DNA of 38,983 nucleotides. Origin: Desulfuromonadaceae bacterium (lineage in GTDB: Bacteria > Desulfobacterota > Desulfuromonadia > Desulfuromonadales > JAHYIW01). The stretch covers positions 1-38,983 of the forward strand of contig JAHYIW010000027.1 in NCBI GenBank assembly GCA_019429445.1, given 5' to 3'. Below the pieces are notes generated by a model. The model was not told the origin of the DNA. It searched no databases and saw only the letters and a program-made list of their open reading frames with translations. The position numbers and the translations under genes were made by a program. Shown here in pieces: positions 1 through 6,209 of this stretch. Numbering within the stretch: the first letter of the stretch is position 1; each line of letters opens with the position of its first letter.

Positions 1-39
1 ACGGGCGTTTTGTGCTAACTGCCGGATTGGTTTTCTCAT
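1..39 (-). CDS. 5' end of an unidentified gene downstream of hsdS (partial)
   Basis: An ATG at 39-37 overlaps the hsdS stop codon as ATGA, and the frame stays open for 13 codons (MRKPIRQLAQNAR) to the window edge. The 4-base stop/start overlap is the same arrangement seen between other genes of this operon, which argues for a real translationally coupled gene. Nothing in 13 residues identifies it. By position it could be hsdR or another accessory gene of the restriction locus, but that is a guess from context only. No strong ribosome binding site is visible inside the end of hsdS. Confidence 0.45.
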   Translation of the reverse strand, partial: MRKPIRQLAQNAR

Positions 40-1400
40 ATCAGGCCGTCCACTTCTGGTTTTGAGGTGTCGGGCTTGGGAAAGCGGAGCAGCAAATCGC
101 GGTAATACTCGTATTGCTTTTGGCGCAATTCGATTTCGCGGGGCAGGCCTTCGCTGATGGAGTTGGTGAGGGTGTCGAATTTGTCGAGGATGGCGACGAT
201 ACGGGATTGTTCTGCGAGTGATTTTTCAGGGTCGTCGGCATAGGGAATAGGTAGCTTGAAGCCTTTTATAATGCTAGAGTTTAGGTCGCCTCTAGCCCCC
301 TGACCAAGCGCCTTAATGTTTTCATAGTTAAAACAAACCCAATGATATACGTAGCTATATAATGCTTTTGCGCTGTCTATTTCCAAACAACCGCAGTGCT
401 GATTGGTTGTTAGCGGTATTTTATTAATTGCAGACCTGCCTGCCGTTGCTCCAGAGATTGCAATTATCACGCAATTTTTAGGAATCCATTTGGCGGATGA
501 ATTTTTCAATGCAGAAAGAGTTACCTTAACCTCCGTTTTTTCAATGTCAGAAAACTTAACCTCTTGGGTTCTTAGCCATGGAATCTCACCGCCTTCATAA
601 TATTCTGGTTTACCAGCTGTTGGGGTTCCACCTGAATACCATTTTTTAGTTACATCCCCCAACGTCTTCCACTCCACCTGCCTTTTGTCACCCTGCGCGA
701 AGTCGCAGGGTCCAGTGGATTCCGCGACTTCGCGCGGAATGACGGGGTCTTCAAAGCTCAACAACTGGTCACGATAGTAGTTGTATTGTTTTTTGCGGGC
801 GGTCAGCTCGGCGGTCAGCTCGGCGGTCAGCTCGGCGGTCAGCTCGGTGAATGCGTCCAGAATACGGACGATTTCGGCTTGGATTTCCAGCGATTTTTCG
901 GGGTTTTCTGGGCAGGGGATGGGAATGGTCAAAGTTTTAATAATGTCTGCGTTCAAATTACTTACAGAACCGCTATTAATTTTACTTAGCCAATAGTTTT
1001 GAACGCTTTTTGAAGCTAGATAGTGATATAGAAAATCTGAGTTTAACTTATCTCCAAACTCGCTAATTGAAGCCCATCCATCATGAATAGCTCCTGTGAT
1101 ATTGAGAATATAGGGTCGACCAAAGCTCATTGAGTTAGAGATGATAAAATCACCCTTATTTAAAACCCTAGATTTTTTAGCACCTTCTTTAGTTATTTTT
1201 TGAGCCGTTTTCTGAACATATTTAAAGCCAGATTCAGTATCACCAATTTTTATCCATGGAACACCGCCTTCATCGTCTGTAATGAATTTAGAAATAGGTC
1301 TAGGCGATGCTCCTCGTTGAATTTTTGCAATTTCTCCGAGCGCCTTCCACTCCACCTCAACCCCATCCAGCAGCTTTTCCATAAAGCGTGTATTATTCAT
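36..1400 (-). CDS. hsdS: Type I restriction-modification specificity subunit HsdS (type IC-like)
   Basis: HsdS gives a type I restriction-modification complex its DNA target. The 454-residue protein has the expected two halves, each a target-recognition domain followed by a conserved helical spacer. The first spacer contains four ELTA/TAEL tetrapeptides followed by ARKKQYNYYRDQLL, and the second has LRQKQYEYYRDLLL. This spacer is typical of the EcoR124/EcoDXXI (type IC) family. I chose the ATG at 1400 because AGGAGG lies six bases upstream; the frame remains open further upstream without a ribosome site. The start overlaps the stop of the BRO-N gene as ATGAATAA, so translation is probably coupled. 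The first recognition domain is clearly AT-rich compared with the rest, a common sign of domain exchange. A 57-bp palindromic element adds 19 in-frame codons just after the first spacer. The DNA target cannot be read from sequence. Confidence 0.93.
   Translation of the reverse strand: MNNTRFMEKLLDGVEVEWKALGEIAKIQRGASPRPISKFITDDEGGVPWIKIGDTESGFKYVQKTAQKITKEGAKKSRVLNKGDFIISNSMSFGRPYILNITGAIHDGWASISEFGDKLNSDFLYHYLASKSVQNYWLSKINSGSVSNLNADIIKTLTIPIPCPENPEKSLEIQAEIVRILDAFTELTAELTAELTAELTARKKQYNYYRDQLLSFEDPVIPREVAESTGPCDFAQGDKRQVEWKTLGDVTKKWYSGGTPTAGKPEYYEGGEIPWLRTQEVKFSDIEKTEVKVTLSALKNSSAKWIPKNCVIIAISGATAGRSAINKIPLTTNQHCGCLEIDSAKALYSYVYHWVCFNYENIKALGQGARGDLNSSIIKGFKLPIPYADDPEKSLAEQSRIVAILDKFDTLTNSISEGLPREIELRQKQYEYYRDLLLRFPKPDTSKPEVDGLI
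687..743. repeat. REP-like palindromic element inserted in frame inside hsdS
   Basis: The 57 bp form an imperfect palindrome: two 23-base arms (687-709 and 721-743) around an 11-base centre, with 18 Watson-Crick pairs and two G-T pairs between the arms. Each arm can also fold alone, with stems ccctgcg/cgcaggg and ttccgcg/cgcggaa, giving the double-hairpin form of REP-like elements. The length is exactly 19 codons, so the hsdS frame is preserved; the peptide begins VIPREVAEST. It sits right after the first conserved spacer and before the second recognition domain, where added length may be tolerated. The base composition differs sharply from the AT-rich recognition-domain DNA nearby. That it is a dispersed mobile element is inference; no second copy is in this window. 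Confidence 0.7.
798..845 (-). repeat. Four perfect tandem copies of a 12-bp repeat encoding the HsdS TAEL spacer
   Basis: The unit ggcggtcagctc (plus strand) is repeated at 798-809, 810-821, 822-833 and 834-845 without a mismatch. On the coding strand each copy encodes Glu-Leu-Thr-Ala, giving (ELTA)4 in the central helical spacer of HsdS. In the EcoR124 family, two versus three TAEL repeats lengthen the nonspecific gap of the target from 6 to 7 bp (established knowledge). Perfect short tandem repeats are prone to slippage, and each 12-bp change keeps the frame, so this is a plausible site of specificity switching. Confidence 0.93.
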
Positions 1401-2247
1401 GGATATCCTCCTGACTGTGATCAGGCAGATGCAGCATGCTTGCATCTTTGGCATTCAGGGGAGAAACCACCTTTTTCAAGGTTTTGGACTCCAGCTCCAA
1501 GCGTGCGTTTCGGGCCACCTCGCCGCCTTGCCGTGCCACCTTTTTGTGCGCTTGAAATGAATCAGGATCGGTCACTTCGGAAATTTCCTTGGTGGAGATT
1601 TCAGCGAGCATGTTCAGCACCAGCTCTTTGTTGGTCATGTTGTCGCGCAGGTTTTCCTTTTTTAATCCCTTGAATTTTTTGTACTCTCTGGCCGTCTTGT
1701 CCGCCCAGGTTTGATAAATGATGTCGGTGAGTGTGGCAAACTGTACGCCTTCCTCCAGGCCGTGCTTTTTCCATTCATCAGTGAGTTCTTTACGGATTTC
1801 AATGGATTTTAATCGCTGGTTGATCCAGTTGTCCGAATAACCCAGGCGCTTGTAGTCTTTCATCGCCTGTTCAATCGAGAGTTCAGGATCCTGAATCTGG
1901 TCGATGCGTTCGCTGGCGACCTGTGCCATCCACAGTTTGAACGGCTCAGCTTTAGGTGAAGGAATGGATTGGATCAGGCGAAAAAGCTGTTCGGTATGGG
2001 CACAATCGGTTTTTCGCATTTTGCCGTCAGCCGCCTGCATTTTGAAAGCGTGACAATCTGTCACGGTTTGATTTCCCTCTTTTTTCAGGCGTTCTTTGAG
2101 TTTGCGCCAATACGCTGTCGGGTTCACGCTGTCCGTCAATACGGCAACCACGTCAACGATGGAAAAATACCACTCTTCCGTTGCATCATCCCACAACGAA
2201 CGAATCGTGCGATCTTCAAAAGCTTTTATGGTCTCTTTGTTACTCAT
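1393..2247 (-). CDS. BRO-N / DinD-like protein encoded inside the restriction-modification operon
   Basis: The 284-residue protein starts with a region (about residues 8-110) that looks like the BRO-N fold found in viral BRO proteins, phage antirepressors and DinD-like proteins: IRSLWDDATEEWYFSIVDVVAVL followed at a short distance by NPTAYWRKLKERL. The rest is charged and probably helical, with no catalytic motif I recognise. BRO-N domains are generally DNA-binding; the role of this protein next to a methylase is unknown. Its ATG overlaps the rhuM stop as ATGA, and its own stop overlaps the hsdS start by 8 bases, so it is an integral operon member rather than a later insertion. Assignment rests on motif recognition without a database search. 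Confidence 0.72.
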   Translation of the reverse strand: MSNKETIKAFEDRTIRSLWDDATEEWYFSIVDVVAVLTDSVNPTAYWRKLKERLKKEGNQTVTDCHAFKMQAADGKMRKTDCAHTEQLFRLIQSIPSPKAEPFKLWMAQVASERIDQIQDPELSIEQAMKDYKRLGYSDNWINQRLKSIEIRKELTDEWKKHGLEEGVQFATLTDIIYQTWADKTAREYKKFKGLKKENLRDNMTNKELVLNMLAEISTKEISEVTDPDSFQAHKKVARQGGEVARNARLELESKTLKKVVSPLNAKDASMLHLPDHSQEDIHE

Positions 2248-3254
2248 GCGTCACCGCCTTTTTTACGGCTCTCTTTTCTTGCCTGTTTTTCCAGTGAAGC
2301 AATGGTTTTCAGGTAGTCTTTTTCCACATTGTCCAGTGTTTTGGCTTTGTATTTCTGGTATTCCAGCTTGGCTTTGTTTGCTGCTTGGGAATGCGAGATG
2401 TTGCCGGCATTGTCCAGTACCTTGCGCCCGGTGGAGTTCAGGATGTTGTCCAGCTCGCGAACATAATCGGCCATACGCATTTCTCGCTCTTCAATGGCGT
2501 TCAATTCAGCCAGATCAAAATACGCAGAAACCAGGTTGTTGAGCACCCGCAATTCCTGCTCGCTGAGGTAGTTTTTGGCAATCATGGCTTCGACCTGTGT
2601 GGGCTGGCTGCCTTTGAAACTGCTTAAGCCCGCAAAGGGTTTATCGCTATCCACGCGCAGGTAGATGACTTCTCTGGCGGTATGGCCGTGAGCGGCATAG
2701 TGCAGTTTGTTTTGTACGATTTTAAAAAACGTGAGGCTTTGCTCGCTATCGGGGGTGTAGTCTGTTGCGGTGGCGTAGAGGTCGAGCACTTGACGGTACA
2801 TCACTTTTTCACTGGAGCGAATATCGCGAATGCGACCCAGCAATTCTTTCCAGTAATTTCCACCACCGAGGTTTTTCAGGCGCTCGTCATTCAAGGAAAA
2901 ACCTTTTTCCAGGTATTCCTTCAAAACAGTGGACGCATAGCGCCTGAATTGCACGCCACGCACCGAACGTACACGATAACCGACTGCCAGAATCACATCG
3001 AGGTTATAGAGTGCAATCGTGCGTGAAACCTCGCGCTCGCCTTCTTTTTGAACTGTCAACTGCTGGTTGACAGTTGCTTTTTCGTTCAGCTCCTGGTCGT
3101 CAAAAATGGCCTGAACGTGCTTGCTGATATTTTGTTTGGTAGTTTGAAAAAGCTCTGCAATTTCTAATTGAGACAACCAAACCGTGCCGTTTTCCAGGCG
3201 TAAATCAATTTTGGTCGTGCCGTCTTCGGTGGTGTAAATAATGACATCGCTCAT
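2244..3254 (-). CDS. RhuM-family protein
   Basis: This 336-residue protein matches the virulence RhuM family by its N-terminal pattern, VWLSQLEIAELFQTTKQNISKHVQ, which looks like a helix-turn-helix, and by the hallmark LDVILAVGYRVRSVRG followed by FRRYASTVLKEYLEKGF. The C-terminal third is rich in Lys and Glu and probably helical. The family was named from Salmonella; its biochemical role is not established, and members are often found within or beside type I restriction loci. The gene begins 3 bases after hsdM ends and its stop overlaps the next start as ATGA. It could regulate or modulate the restriction system, but that is inference from position. Confidence 0.82.
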   Translation of the reverse strand: MSDVIIYTTEDGTTKIDLRLENGTVWLSQLEIAELFQTTKQNISKHVQAIFDDQELNEKATVNQQLTVQKEGEREVSRTIALYNLDVILAVGYRVRSVRGVQFRRYASTVLKEYLEKGFSLNDERLKNLGGGNYWKELLGRIRDIRSSEKVMYRQVLDLYATATDYTPDSEQSLTFFKIVQNKLHYAAHGHTAREVIYLRVDSDKPFAGLSSFKGSQPTQVEAMIAKNYLSEQELRVLNNLVSAYFDLAELNAIEEREMRMADYVRELDNILNSTGRKVLDNAGNISHSQAANKAKLEYQKYKAKTLDNVEKDYLKTIASLEKQARKESRKKGGDA

Positions 3255-3257
3255 GCC

Positions 3258-4808
3258 TTAAGCCCCCTCGTCTTCAATCTCCGCCACGATGGCATCAATC
3301 TCCACGCGAAGTTTGTCGATCCTGGCGACGGTGGTTTTCAGTTCGGCATTGAGCTGGGAAATATCCACTATTTCGCGATTGTCTTTGGCTTCGACGTAGC
3401 TGCTCACCGACAGGTTGTAGTCGTTGGCGGCGACCTGCTCAAAGGGTACGGATTTGGCGAGGTGATCGACATTGGCTTTGCTGTCGAACGCCTGCATGAT
3501 CTGTTCGATGTGGCTATCTGTGAGGATGTTGGTATTGGTCTCTTTTTTAAACAGGCCGCTGGCATCAATAAACTGGGTGTTGGTATCGGTTTTGTGTTTG
3601 GAGAGCACCAGAATAGTCACCGCGATGGTGGTGCCAAAAAACAGGTTGGGCGCGAGGGAGATCACGGTTTCGACATAGTTGTTATCCACCAGATATTGAC
3701 GGATTTTGGCTTCAGCACCGCCACGGTAAAAAATACCGGGAAAGCAGACAATGGCTGCTCGGCCTTTGCTGGATAAATAACTTAAAGCATGTAGTACAAA
3801 GGCAAAGTCAGCTTTTGACTTGGGCGCGAGCACTCCGGCTGGGGCAAAGCGATCATCATTAATCAGGGTGGGGTCGTCTGCGCCGATCCATTTCACCGAA
3901 TAAGGCGGATTGGAGACGATGGCGTCGAAGGGTTTGTCGTCGCCAAAATGCGGATCTCGCAGTGTATCACCCAACTGGATATTGAACTTATCGTAGTTGA
4001 TGTTGTGCAAAAACATGTTCATCCGCGCCAGGTTGTAAGTGGTGTGGTTGATCTCCTGCCCCCAAAAACCGTCTTCAATGATGTGGGCGTCAAAATGTTT
4101 TTTGGCTTGCAGCAGCAACGAACCGGAACCACAGGCCGGGTCATAGATTTTATTGACGCTTTTCTGTTTGTGCATGGCGAGCTGCGCAATCAGCCTGGAG
4201 ACGTGTTGCGGAGTGAAAAACTCACCACCCGATTTACCGGCATTGGCGGCGTAGTTGGAGATGAGAAACTCATAGGCATCACCGAACAGGTCGATATGGT
4301 TGCCTTCAAAATCACCAAAATCGAGCCCAGCCACGCCTTTGAGCACAGCCGCCAAACGTGTGTTCTTGTCTTTCACCGTATTGCCCAGGCGGTTGCTGGT
4401 GGTATCAAAATCGGCAAACAGGCCTTTGATGTCCGGTTCAGAGGGGTAGCCATTGGCGGAAGATTCAATCGCAGCAAAGATGGCGGCGAGATCCGTATTC
4501 AGGCTCTCGTTGGTGTTGGCATCTTTGGCGATATTAGCAAACAATTGGCTGGGGTAGATGAAGTAGCCCTTGGTTTTAATGGCATCGTCTTTGATCTCCG
4601 GGGTGATAACGTTGTCGGCAAGCGCCGCATAATTGATGCTGTCGTCATCGGCCTCAATATAGCTGGCAAAGTTTTCACTGATAAAGCGATAAAACAAGGT
4701 GCCGAGTACATACTGTTTAAAATCCCAGCCATCCACTGAGCCTCGTACATCGTTGGCGATTGACCAGATTTGGCGTTGCAGGGCGGCGCGTTGTTGGGTA
4801 CTTGTCAT
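3258..4808 (-). CDS. hsdM: Type I restriction-modification DNA methyltransferase subunit HsdM
   Basis: HsdM is the adenine-N6 methyltransferase subunit of a type I system and pairs with HsdS to methylate the target. The 516-residue protein shows the type IC N-terminus ([21 protein letters not shown], residues 11-31), the S-adenosylmethionine motif DPACGSG at 223-229 and the catalytic NPPY at 300-303 (in SNPPYSVKW). Length fits the EcoR124 type. The ATG at 4808 is preferred, preceded by aggaataacacc; an upstream extension of 24 codons has no ribosome site. It is the first gene of a minus-strand operon hsdM-rhuM-broN-hsdS. No obvious sigma-70 promoter is visible in the 259 bp upstream, so its promoter is unresolved. 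The restriction subunit gene hsdR is not in the window. Confidence 0.96.
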
Positions 4809-5067
4809 GGTGTTATTCCTGTTTTGATACATTTTGACTGGTAAGCAGTTCACAAAAACTATTGAATCTACAAATGCCACTTTTTATGTTTCATCAAACA
4901 AACTCAACATCTGCACAATTAGGTGATTGAGTCCATGCCACGACAAAATTAAGGGAATTATTACATTTTCTTATCCTGAATTTGCCGTTTTCATGTTCCG
5001 TGCGCAGCAAAACGTGTAGCAAATTTTTACCTGATATTCCGCAATGTTGCAAAATATCTAATATATT

Positions 5068-5739
5068 CTACTGCTCCAGTAACTTCCTGGCTAAACTATG
5101 CAGCTCCGAGTTGGCGAGTGCAACCACTTTCTTTTTCACTGTTCGGGAATAATATTCCTGCTCCGTCTTAGTCAGAGGGTCGCCCTCCAGCTTCTTCCTG
5201 AACAGCTCCTTCTGTTTTGGGGAGAAGACCTGTGACAGGGCATATTCCAGCGAGAACTCTTCGTAACGGTCCTTGCGTCTCCGGTCTTTTTCGACTTTCT
5301 CTTCATAGTACAGTTCAAACAGACCCCTGACTCGCCCGGGATCGCATTCCTCGTTCATCCAATCTGGCGTCTGGTAGCGGGCCAGGGCATTGCGCCAGGT
5401 CTTTACCCGACTCATATCGTCAGCGGAGAAGTTTTTCTTTAGCTTGCTCAACCATGAAAATGTCAGCTTGTAATAAGCATAGACTGCGGTCGAAAGTAAT
5501 ACGAGTCGGTGGTAGCGTTCCTTCAGGTCATCTGTGGAAAGTTGCCGTTCAACCTGGCTAGAATCAAACTGGTAGCTTTCTCCTGCATTGGCCAGAAGGA
5601 CGGGAAACCCTTCCCATAGACGGGTATCGTTACTCTTGACTACTTCGGCCAAGGTCTCGTTCACATCCAACTCTTCGCTCGGCTCGAACATCGGAAATCC
5701 GAGTTTGGAGAGACTTTTGAGGAGTTTGTCGTCAGTCAT
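5068..5739 (-). CDS. Uncharacterised 223-residue protein in the selC-side accessory block
   Basis: I do not recognise this protein. It has an acidic N-terminal part (GFPMFEPSEELDVNETLAEVVKSNDTRLWEGFPVLL), an aromatic-rich middle (YHRLVLLSTAVYAYYKLTFSWLSKL, about residues 75-100, which could be an amphipathic helix) and a basic, charged C-terminal part with LTKTEQEYYSRTVKKKVVALANSELH. The last segment could be a helix-turn-helix like motif. There is no signal peptide or clear membrane span. A ribosome site (gggaagg) lies 8 bases before the ATG. The gene overlaps a 34-codon upstream frame as ATGACTGA, so the two are probably coupled, and both lie behind a strong promoter with three phased palindromes. 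It may be a defence or toxin-antitoxin type component by neighbourhood, but that is speculation. Confidence 0.8.
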   Translation of the reverse strand: MTDDKLLKSLSKLGFPMFEPSEELDVNETLAEVVKSNDTRLWEGFPVLLANAGESYQFDSSQVERQLSTDDLKERYHRLVLLSTAVYAYYKLTFSWLSKLKKNFSADDMSRVKTWRNALARYQTPDWMNEECDPGRVRGLFELYYEEKVEKDRRRKDRYEEFSLEYALSQVFSPKQKELFRKKLEGDPLTKTEQEYYSRTVKKKVVALANSELHSLARKLLEQ

Positions 5740-5836
5740 TATTTATACCTTCCCTTAGTAGTGACAGGAAGTGGTCTATGTTTGGGCGTAAGCGTTCTTC
5801 GGCGACGTCATAGCTGACCATTTTCGAGGAGTTCAT
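5732..5836 (-). CDS. Small 34-residue leader or partner frame upstream of the 223-residue gene
   Basis: An ATG at 5836 opens a 34-codon frame (starting MNSSKMVSYDVAEERLRP) that ends in TGA at 5734-5732, overlapping the next gene's ATG by 8 bases. It is the first frame after the predicted transcription start near 5905. A weak ribosome site (agg) sits 10 bases upstream. It could be a regulatory leader peptide, a small antitoxin-like partner, or the leftover C-terminus of a larger deleted gene such as a nucleotidyltransferase; the sequence alone does not decide. The overlap pattern resembles the one between broN and hsdS and supports translation. Confidence 0.5.
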   Translation of the reverse strand: MNSSKMVSYDVAEERLRPNIDHFLSLLREGINND

Positions 5837-5858
5837 TTTTATCTAACCTGTATTTAGT

Positions 5859-5920
5859 TTGTACCATTTTGTGCAAGTCCTTGTACTTAAATATACAAAC
5901 ATTTGTACAAATATATACAA
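5859..5920. promoter_or_regulatory. Three 18-bp palindromic operators in exact 22-bp phase
   Basis: Three inverted repeats of the form TTGTA-N8-TACAA lie at 5903-5920 (ttgtacaaatatatacaa), 5881-5898 (ttgtacttaaatatacaa) and 5859-5876 (ttgtaccattttgtgcaa, one arm base changed). Starts are 22 bp apart, about two helical turns, so a dimeric regulator would bind three sites on one face of the DNA. The promoter-proximal site contains the predicted -10 box and a second perfect 12-bp palindrome (5901-5912), so binding should repress the minus-strand operon. The regulator is not identified; it could be either product of the downstream pair or a protein encoded elsewhere. Confidence 0.72.
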
Positions 5921-5940
5921 TATTAGTTTTACAGTGTCAA
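5912..5940 (-). promoter_or_regulatory. Near-consensus sigma-70 promoter for the 34/223-residue gene pair
   Basis: On the minus strand TTGACA (5940-5935) is followed by a 17-base spacer and TATATA (5917-5912). Transcription would start near 5905 and run into the three TTGTA-N8-TACAA palindromes. No other gene lies between it and the 34-codon frame, so it most likely serves that pair. Confidence 0.72.
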
Positions 5941-6113: not shown

Positions 6114-6209
6114 TGGCGGGAGCAGATGGGAATCGAACCCACCGGGGACGGGATACGCCCCCCACCGGTTTTGAAGACCGGGCGTGGCACCAGATCACGA
6201 ACTGCTCCC
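6114..6209 (-). tRNA. selC: tRNA-Sec (anticodon TCA)
   Basis: The minus strand carries a 96-base tRNA with an 8-bp acceptor stem (GGGAGCAG with CTGCTCCC), a long variable arm, the T-loop GGTTCGATTCC and an encoded CCA (6116-6114). The anticodon TCA is at 6174-6172 in the loop CTTCAAA. The long acceptor stem, the long variable arm and the UGA-reading anticodon identify selenocysteine tRNA. The gene follows yedF by 11 bases on the same strand and probably shares its transcript. selC is a well-known insertion site for genomic islands, and the restriction block begins just beyond its 3' end, although no integrase or duplicated tRNA end is visible here. Confidence 0.97.

What the first reader, a model, noticed from the sequence alone, without database searches (positions are those of the whole stretch)
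5859..5940. Three palindromic operators in exact 22-bp phase over a near-consensus promoter
Seen directly: TTGACA-N17-TATATA on the minus strand, followed by TTGTA-N8-TACAA at 5903-5920 and 5881-5898 and a near match at 5859-5876, each 18 bp and 22 bp apart. The first overlaps the -10 box. This is the arrangement of a cooperatively binding dimeric repressor, on genes (34 and 223 residues) I cannot name. Tight control of a strong promoter is what one expects of a toxic or defence component.
Basis: partly seen in the sequence, partly recalled or inferred. Interest (0 to 1): 0.82.

Follow-up and report, generated by a model that had tools for sequence, protein, structure and literature searches.

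The report
Three operators guarding a toxin-like operon
Three evenly spaced palindromes sit on the promoter of a two-gene operon, probably a nucleotidyltransferase toxin and its repressor, and the same arrangement recurs in dozens of related bacteria; in this genome the toxin gene has been mostly deleted while the switch and the presumed repressor remain.

Summary
In detail: a TTGACA-N17-TATATA promoter on the minus strand is followed by TTGTA-N8-TACAA at 5903-5920 and 5881-5898 (exact) and 5859-5876 (one mismatch), in 22-bp phase. The phasing is not chance. In relatives the array stands before a two-gene operon: 37 of 40 testable loci have at least two sites in 22-bp (33) or 23-bp (4) phase. 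Of 277 genomes of the class, 14 hold the exact tandem array, 13 of them at this operon. Gene 1 in relatives is a ~195-residue DUF6036 nucleotidyltransferase whose predicted fold is close to the MenT1 toxin. Gene 2 (223 residues here) is an unnamed all-helical family with a near-invariant basic C-terminus. In the window gene 1 is destroyed: about 460 bp are missing, and the '34-residue gene' is the scrap left. Gene 2 and all operators persist. Gene 1 is broken with gene 2 intact in 7 of 277 genomes, the reverse in 1. I read it as a new variant of nucleotidyltransferase toxin-antitoxin operon, gene 2 being the probable antitoxin and autorepressor, here an orphan. DNA binding and toxicity are inferred, not shown.

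The parts
5935..5940 (-). -35 box TTGACA
   Evidence: in relatives with an array TTGACA is exact near the first palindrome in 22 of 37, and within 1 mismatch 15-20 bp before it in 27 of 37
5912..5917 (-). -10 box TATATA, inside the first palindrome (17-bp spacer)
5903..5920 (.). operator O1, TTGTA-N8-TACAA, exact
   Evidence: conserved in relatives
5881..5898 (.). operator O2, exact, 22 bp from O1
   Evidence: conserved in relatives
5859..5876 (.). operator O3, one mismatch, 22 bp from O2; overlaps the old start codon of gene 1
   Evidence: the least conserved of the three in relatives
5808..5867 (-). N-terminal relic of gene 1 (nucleotidyltransferase): ATG inside O3, 19 codons, then stop
   Evidence: same start as MEYRLDKNELLE in L029
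5732..5836 (-). 34-residue ORF: C-terminal scrap of gene 1, first five codons out of its frame; about 460 bp missing upstream of it
   Evidence: 75.9% identity to residues 169-197 of the intact protein of L030; first operator to gene 2 is 181 bp here against 634-645 bp in near relatives with intact gene 1 and an array
5068..5739 (-). gene 2, 223 residues, intact; presumed antitoxin and autorepressor with near-invariant C-terminus
6114..6209 (-). tRNA-SeC gene directly upstream of the operon (context)
   Evidence: tRNA-SeC upstream also in L029, L032, L033, L036, L056, 5 of 47 loci scanned

Best explanation
The palindromes are the operators of a self-regulating two-gene operon. Gene 1 encodes a MenT/AbiEii-like nucleotidyltransferase (DUF6036), most likely a growth-stopping toxin. 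Gene 2 encodes an all-helical protein with a degenerate HEPN-like middle and a basic, near-invariant C-terminus that may be a sigma-region-4-like DNA-binding domain; it most likely neutralises the toxin and binds O1-O3 side by side on one face of the helix (22 bp is about two turns), covering the -10 box, the start site and the start codon of gene 1. When gene 2 product is scarce the promoter opens and both are made again. In the window the core of gene 1 is deleted, so promoter, operators and gene 2 form an orphan autoregulated unit. Shown by computation: the array, its conservation at this operon, the identity of gene 1, its deletion here. Inferred: that gene 2 is the binder, cooperativity, toxicity, antitoxin role.
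For: Array conserved before the operon at 37 of 40 testable loci while the 8-bp centres vary; consensus pooled over both strands TTGTAYNWATWNRTACAA. In 277 genomes, 13 of the 14 with an exact array have it at this operon. Distant homologues (gene 2 34-36% identical) keep the same half-sites though the phase is 23 bp, so the 18-bp palindrome looks like the unit. Gene 1: Pfam DUF6036 27.4 and 36.8 bits against cut-off 23.6; model pLDDT 91.7; MenT1 first by VIA-align (Z 13.5, rmsd 3.8, 172 aligned), also MenT3 and MenT4; G34, G35, T36, S46, T47, D49 in 30 of 30, D51 in 29 of 30. Gene 2: residues 170-223 have 89% mean column identity against 51-78% elsewhere and are basic (12 K/R, 7 D/E); third-base identity at fourfold sites is not raised over 170-210 (0.36-0.37 against 0.34-0.44 over 1-169; 0.47 in the last 13 residues), so the constraint there is on the protein. 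Decay: gene 1 broken with gene 2 intact in 7 of 277 genomes, gene 2 broken with gene 1 intact in 1; in G238, as in the window, nearly all of gene 1 is gone and operators plus gene 2 stay.
Against: No binding or toxicity data. The window's gene 2 matches no model in Pfam, PADLOC, NCBIfam or PHROGs at E<=1; its model is moderate (pLDDT 80.1, pTM 0.59), Foldseek finds nothing at E<=0.001, and the sigma match (Z 5.9, rmsd 3.0, 63 aligned) is in the range the tool calls common for helical proteins. Foldseek ranks the H. pylori nucleotidyltransferase 4ok0 above MenT1 for gene 1, and the gene 1 model also aligns to the AbiEi antitoxin (Z 8.9), so fold alone does not say toxin. One exact triple array (L085 in G182) stands without gene 2 or a DUF6036 gene in that genome. 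Three of 40 loci lack a phased pair. Seven against one is a small asymmetry (one-sided binomial 9/256, my arithmetic); two of the seven are frameshifts that could be assembly errors, and losses may be recent drift. Rv2827c, the best studied analogue with several repeats, binds them with negative cooperativity (PMC7319586, passages). Gene order is toxin first, unlike AbiE.
Confidence: 0.6

Rival explanations
1. The operators are read by a regulator encoded elsewhere; gene 2 is only the partner of the nucleotidyltransferase.
For: Gene 2 has no certified DNA-binding domain; the array L085 exists in a genome without a gene 2 match; 32 phage contigs carry tandem sites of the same sequence without gene 2 in the stretches held.
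Against: 13 of 14 exact arrays in the class sit at this operon, one place per genome, which suits a dedicated cis-encoded regulator; the array persists beside gene 2 after gene 1 is broken in 5 of 7 such genomes (G000, G084, G068, G037, G238).
Confidence: 0.18
2. Polarity is the reverse, as in HEPN-MNT modules: gene 2 is a HEPN ribonuclease toxin and gene 1 the nucleotidyltransferase antitoxin that modifies it.
For: 4 of 40 members of gene 2 match HEPN_Swt1 weakly (best E 2.3e-4); an RN-x3-H-like stretch lies at residues 116-121; pairing of a polymerase-beta-type nucleotidyltransferase with a HEPN-like protein.
Against: Arg and His of the motif are both present in only 16 of 40, and the window has RNALAR, while the nucleotidyltransferase centre is near-invariant. 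Gene 1 is lost with gene 2 kept more often than the reverse (7 against 1 of 277), including members that keep R and H (L029, L032, L021).
Confidence: 0.12
3. The window copy is a decaying remnant with no present role; operators and gene 2 are simply not yet lost (compatible with the best explanation for the family).
For: Gene 1 is destroyed here and no DUF6036 match exists in the genome; in the other genome of the genus (G001; locus L036 appears to be the same) the -10 box, operators, gene 1 and the first 40 or 41 codons of gene 2 are gone beside tRNA-SeC; 15 of the 53 genomes with a gene 2 match hold only fragments (my count).
Against: Gene 2 has no stop or frameshift and the three sites have 0, 0 and 1 mismatches; five of seven genomes that broke gene 1 kept the array.
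Confidence: 0.35

Closest known systems
AbiE (AbiEi-AbiEii), type IV toxin-antitoxin
   Same: Two-gene operon with a polymerase-beta-type nucleotidyltransferase; promoter with phased inverted repeats to which the antitoxin binds (PMC3985639, PMC7319586, passages).
   Different: Here the nucleotidyltransferase comes first; gene 1 is DUF6036 and no AbiEii model was listed for it; GG-x13-DxD spacing against x15; gene 2 matches no AbiEi model; 18-bp palindromes in 22-bp phase against 23-bp repeats 3 bp apart.
MenAT of mycobacteria (MenT1-MenA1 and others)
   Same: Best VIA-align match of gene 1 (MenT1, Z 13.5); conserved S/T-x-D-x-D centre; antitoxins of unrelated families are usual (PMC10435456, PMC11375011, passages); Rv2827c binds four repeats at its own promoter, with negative cooperativity (PMC7319586, passages).
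   Different: Gene order; three palindromes of another sequence; another bacterial class; gene 2 matches no named family; toxicity untested.
HEPN-MNT, type VII toxin-antitoxin
   Same: Pairing of a nucleotidyltransferase with a protein holding a HEPN-like stretch.
   Different: HEPN catalytic pair present in only 16 of 40; gene 1 listed only DUF6036 above the noise in Pfam; decay points to gene 1 as the harmful partner.

Membership tests
DUF6036 nucleotidyltransferases (Pfam PF19502) | score above Pfam's gathering cut-off | tested here: met
   two intact relatives scanned, L005/L030 27.4 and L066 36.8 bits against 23.6; the window itself keeps only a scrap
AbiE type IV toxin-antitoxin | toxin of the AbiEii/DUF1814 family | tested here: not met
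   two intact gene 1 proteins scanned against Pfam up to E 10: DUF6036, and for one a sub-threshold Phage_TAC_19, nothing else
AbiE type IV toxin-antitoxin | antitoxin of the AbiEi family with N-terminal winged helix, encoded first | tested here: not met
   gene 2 is second and none of 40 members lists such a family; its most conserved part is C-terminal
AbiE type IV toxin-antitoxin | phased inverted repeats on the operon's own promoter | tested here: met
   binding itself not testable
MenT-like toxin fold | overall fold | tested here: met
   Z 13.5, rmsd 3.8, 172 aligned to MenT1, ANT(2'') next at 11.2; Foldseek ranks 4ok0 of H. pylori first and MenT1 third
MenT-like toxin fold | catalytic S/T, Asp, Lys, distal Asp (MenT1 T39, D41, K137, D152; PMC11375011, passage) | tested here: met
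   S46, T47, D49, K135, D143, D146 invariant in 30 of 30, D51 in 29 of 30; equivalence judged by eye, not by structural alignment
HEPN-MNT type VII | conserved Arg-x4-6-His in the HEPN partner | tested here: not met
   Arg and His both present in 16 of 40; window has RNALAR
Any toxin-antitoxin system | one product toxic, the other neutralising | not testable with these tools
   needs expression in a laboratory strain
Autorepressed operon | an operon product binds the operators | not testable with these tools
   co-conservation only

The most novel reading that the evidence does not exclude
A new toxin-antitoxin family of Desulfuromonadales and their kin: toxin-first operon, MenT-like DUF6036 nucleotidyltransferase, and a new antitoxin-repressor class (degenerate HEPN fused to a sigma-region-4-like reader) that closes its promoter by assembling on three palindromes phased at two helical turns. 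In several lineages the toxin has been deleted while the self-regulated antitoxin stays, possibly as standing immunity against incoming copies of the toxin.
Probability: 0.35. Interest if true: 0.62.

Novelty: new variant of a known kind. Interest (0 to 1): 0.52.

Why it matters
It gives an unnamed, well-conserved protein family (the window's member matches nothing in four family libraries) a testable job, and an operator code that can be recognised in genomes. It would add another kind of partner to nucleotidyltransferase toxins, tie operator phasing to a two-turn assembly, and offer natural toxin-deleted, antitoxin-kept loci with which to ask whether orphan antitoxins protect cells.

Tried and rejected
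Standalone role for the 34-residue ORF: rejected, it aligns to the C-terminus of the nucleotidyltransferase. Gene 2 as mobile element or recombination site because C-terminal fragments abound: fragments occur in many genomes, but fourfold-site identity shows no DNA-level constraint over residues 170-210 (the last 13 residues, with few sites, are higher), and the scan patterns favour the conserved C-terminus, so I read them as decay. Gene 2 in plasmids or phage genomes: no tblastn match up to E 1 in either collection; a pattern-limited scan of IMG/VR gave two contigs, each with a C-terminal-domain protein only. Link between phage tandem sites and that domain: 32 contigs with sites, but 1 of 32 records has a weak match, read as chance from its sequence, against 1 of 22 control records (which also held the two domain-bearing contigs and left out two control loci of an already listed contig), and 0 of 32 have TTGACA within 1 mismatch at the expected place, about 10% expected; rejected for now. 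The two domain-bearing contigs have no array in the stretches held. Fold of gene 2: Foldseek nothing at E<=0.001; VIA-align Z at most 5.9, so absence of a better match proves nothing. A third gene in the operon: 18 loci examined, two (L033, L045) with no downstream ORF to judge by; in 13 of the other 16 the next ORF of 90 or more residues begins at least 234 bp after gene 2; it is nearer in L064 (51 bp, same strand), L054 (122 bp, same strand) and L056 (190 bp, opposite strand). Neighbours: one protein from each of 10 loci gave a mixed list (kinase, aminotransferase, AAA ATPase, helicase-like and others), so defence-island placement is not general. Literature: DUF6036 in no held paper; nothing recognisable as this operon in the titles and abstract starts listed; passages, not whole texts, read of PMC7319586, PMC3710099, PMC10435456, PMC3985639, PMC11375011.

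Full report
What is there. On the minus strand the window has TTGACA (5935-5940), 17 bp, TATATA (5912-5917) and then three palindromes TTGTA-N8-TACAA at 5903-5920, 5881-5898 and 5859-5876 with 0, 0 and 1 mismatches, each 22 bp from the next. The first contains the -10 box. Downstream lie a 34-residue ORF and a 223-residue ORF that overlap by 8 bases. Upstream is a tRNA-SeC gene; beyond gene 2 lie hsdM, a RhuM-type gene, a Bro-N gene and hsdS on the same strand.

Is it chance? Single sites are as common as expected: 12 loose matches against 8.8 in the window, and two exact sites in the genome against three of the reversed control pattern. What is unusual is that both exact sites are here, in phase. 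The exact tandem array was found in 14 of 277 genomes of the class, with 0 for the reversed-pattern control in the listed rows.

What the operon is. The window's 223-residue protein matches no model in Pfam, PADLOC, NCBIfam or PHROGs at E<=1, but 24 of 147 searched genomes, the own one included, and 47 loci of the genome collection hold relatives; both counts include fragments. I took the 52 loci with gene 2 matched from its first residues, dropped 10 duplicates and looked at the 42 left. In 31 of 42 the region before gene 2 encodes an intact protein of about 195-208 residues, in 2 (L034, L044) it is cut by a contig end, and in 9 (window, L029, L032, L035, L039, L047, L021, L058, L067) it is broken or missing (my count). 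Its end is the sequence that the 34-residue ORF preserves. It is a DUF6036 nucleotidyltransferase above Pfam's cut-off in the two members scanned. In the window only its first codons (5808-5867) and its last 29 residues or so remain; the first palindrome lies 181 bp from gene 2 instead of 634-645 bp, so about 460 bp are missing. The genome has no DUF6036 match at E<=0.001.

The array belongs to the operon. Of the 42 loci two lack upstream sequence. Of the other 40, 33 have at least two sites (each with at most 2 mismatches) at 22 bp and 4 at 23 bp; 3 have no such pair (L039, L021, and L051, which has a single exact site). All three sites are within 2 mismatches in 22 of the 37. The loci are related, not independent. 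The 8-bp centre varies; the consensus pooled over both strands is TTGTAYNWATWNRTACAA. Block-shuffled upstream regions never gave a comparable triple. TTGACA is exact in 22 of 37, and within one mismatch 15-20 bp before the first site in 27 of 37. In the distant group (L064-L067) the sites are 23 bp apart and lie upstream of a TTGAC-containing stretch, so the way of control may differ there. Looking from the other side, 13 of the 14 genomes with an exact array have it at this operon; the exception, L085, has a triple array between a Fic-like ORF and a small helix-turn-helix ORF (these two names are my reading of the sequence), with neither a gene 2 match nor a DUF6036 match in that genome.

Gene 1. 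The AlphaFold2 model (30 sequences, pLDDT 91.7) is nearest to MenT1 by VIA-align (Z 13.5, rmsd 3.8, 172 aligned), with ANT(2''), MenT3, MenT4 and JHP933 further down, and also the AbiEi antitoxin at Z 8.9; Foldseek ranks the H. pylori protein 4ok0 first and MenT1 third. G34, G35, T36, S46, T47 and D49 are invariant in 30 of 30, D51 in 29, D90 in 28, and K135, D143, D146 are invariant. These resemble residues needed in MenT1 (T39, D41, K137, D152; PMC11375011, passages) and the AbiEii motifs (PMC3985639, passages), with GG-x13-DxD spacing as in the polymerase-beta consensus rather than x15 as in DUF1814.

Gene 2. Forty sequences show a variable middle (51-57% mean column identity over 61-130) and a C-terminus (170-223) of 89%. 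Four of 40 match HEPN_Swt1 weakly; the Arg and His of the HEPN motif are both kept in 16 of 40, not in the window, so the family as a whole is unlikely to be a HEPN ribonuclease. The model (pLDDT 80.1) is all helical, with helices 174-185 and 191-222 at the C-terminus; VIA-align puts 149-213 on residues 339-416 of sigma A (Z 5.9, rmsd 3.0, 63 aligned). That is weak by the tool's own scale; that this part of sigma is region 4, and that it hints at a helix-turn-helix, is my recollection and reading.

Which partner is harmful? From, in 277 genomes: gene 1 broken with gene 2 intact in 7 (the window's genome, G084, G068, G037, G100, G238, G223; G068 and G037 by frameshifts, which could be assembly errors), gene 2 broken with gene 1 intact in 1 (G232, frameshift at codon 197). 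G217 and G219 are cut by contig ends and left out; G248 has both broken. In 5 of the 7 the array persists. In G238 nearly the whole of gene 1 is gone between array and gene 2, as in the window but with other ends. The asymmetry is small but in the direction expected if gene 1 is the toxin.

How it most likely works. Gene 2 product, alone or with gene 1 product, sits on three palindromes two helical turns apart, covering the -10 box, start site and the start codon of gene 1, and so limits its own synthesis; loss of gene 2 product frees the promoter and the nucleotidyltransferase. AbiEi (positive cooperativity) and Rv2827c (negative cooperativity) regulate their own operons through promoter repeats in a comparable way (PMC3985639, PMC7319586, passages). 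In this genome the presumed toxin is gone and an autoregulated orphan would remain.

Context. Five of 47 other loci scanned have tRNA-SeC upstream as the window has, so this is a recurrent place; one neighbour from each of 10 loci gave a mixed list. In the other genome of the genus (G001; L036 appears to be the same locus) the -10 box, the operators, gene 1 and the first 40 or 41 codons of gene 2 are missing beside tRNA-SeC.

Verdict. I score it as a new variant of a known kind.

Noticed in passing
L136-L167 (IMG/VR contigs): 32 viral stretches carry two TTGTA-N8-TACAA sites at 22 or 23 bp; 26 of 32 have an ORF of 60 or more residues starting within 250 bp on a fitting strand (my count, no random control), and 4 of 9 neighbours scanned are packaging genes (terminase small subunit, two large subunits, portal). 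Some stretches are copies of one another. Same sites at 26/27 bp: 0. A permuted half-site at 22/23 bp gives 24 stretches, many from a few families, and at 26/27 bp 0. No TTGACA at the place seen in the bacterial operon. Regulator unknown.
   Followed up: partly
L134:3947-4204 and L135:3794-4192: Phage contigs encode an 85- and a 132-residue protein 44-45% identical to the gene 2 C-terminus; in L134 a gene that looks like a terminase large subunit (my reading) follows after one small ORF.
   Followed up: partly
L085:1501-1562: An exact triple array without the operon, in a genome with neither a gene 2 nor a DUF6036 match: relic or another regulator's target.
   Followed up: partly
36-4880: Type I restriction-modification genes hsdM and hsdS with a RhuM-type and a Bro-N gene between them, both matching PADLOC candidate families (PDC-S05, PDC-S13); hsdR was not looked for.
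   Followed up: no
L043:2686-6669: Three separate C-terminal remnants of gene 2 upstream of a full copy of the operon, and a tandem C-terminal copy just after gene 2 in L042: repeated gain and decay at one place.
   Followed up: partly
L036:5725-6546: Beside tRNA-SeC a deletion runs from just after TTGACAC to about codon 41 of gene 2; apparently the same locus as in G001, the other genome of the genus.
   Followed up: yes
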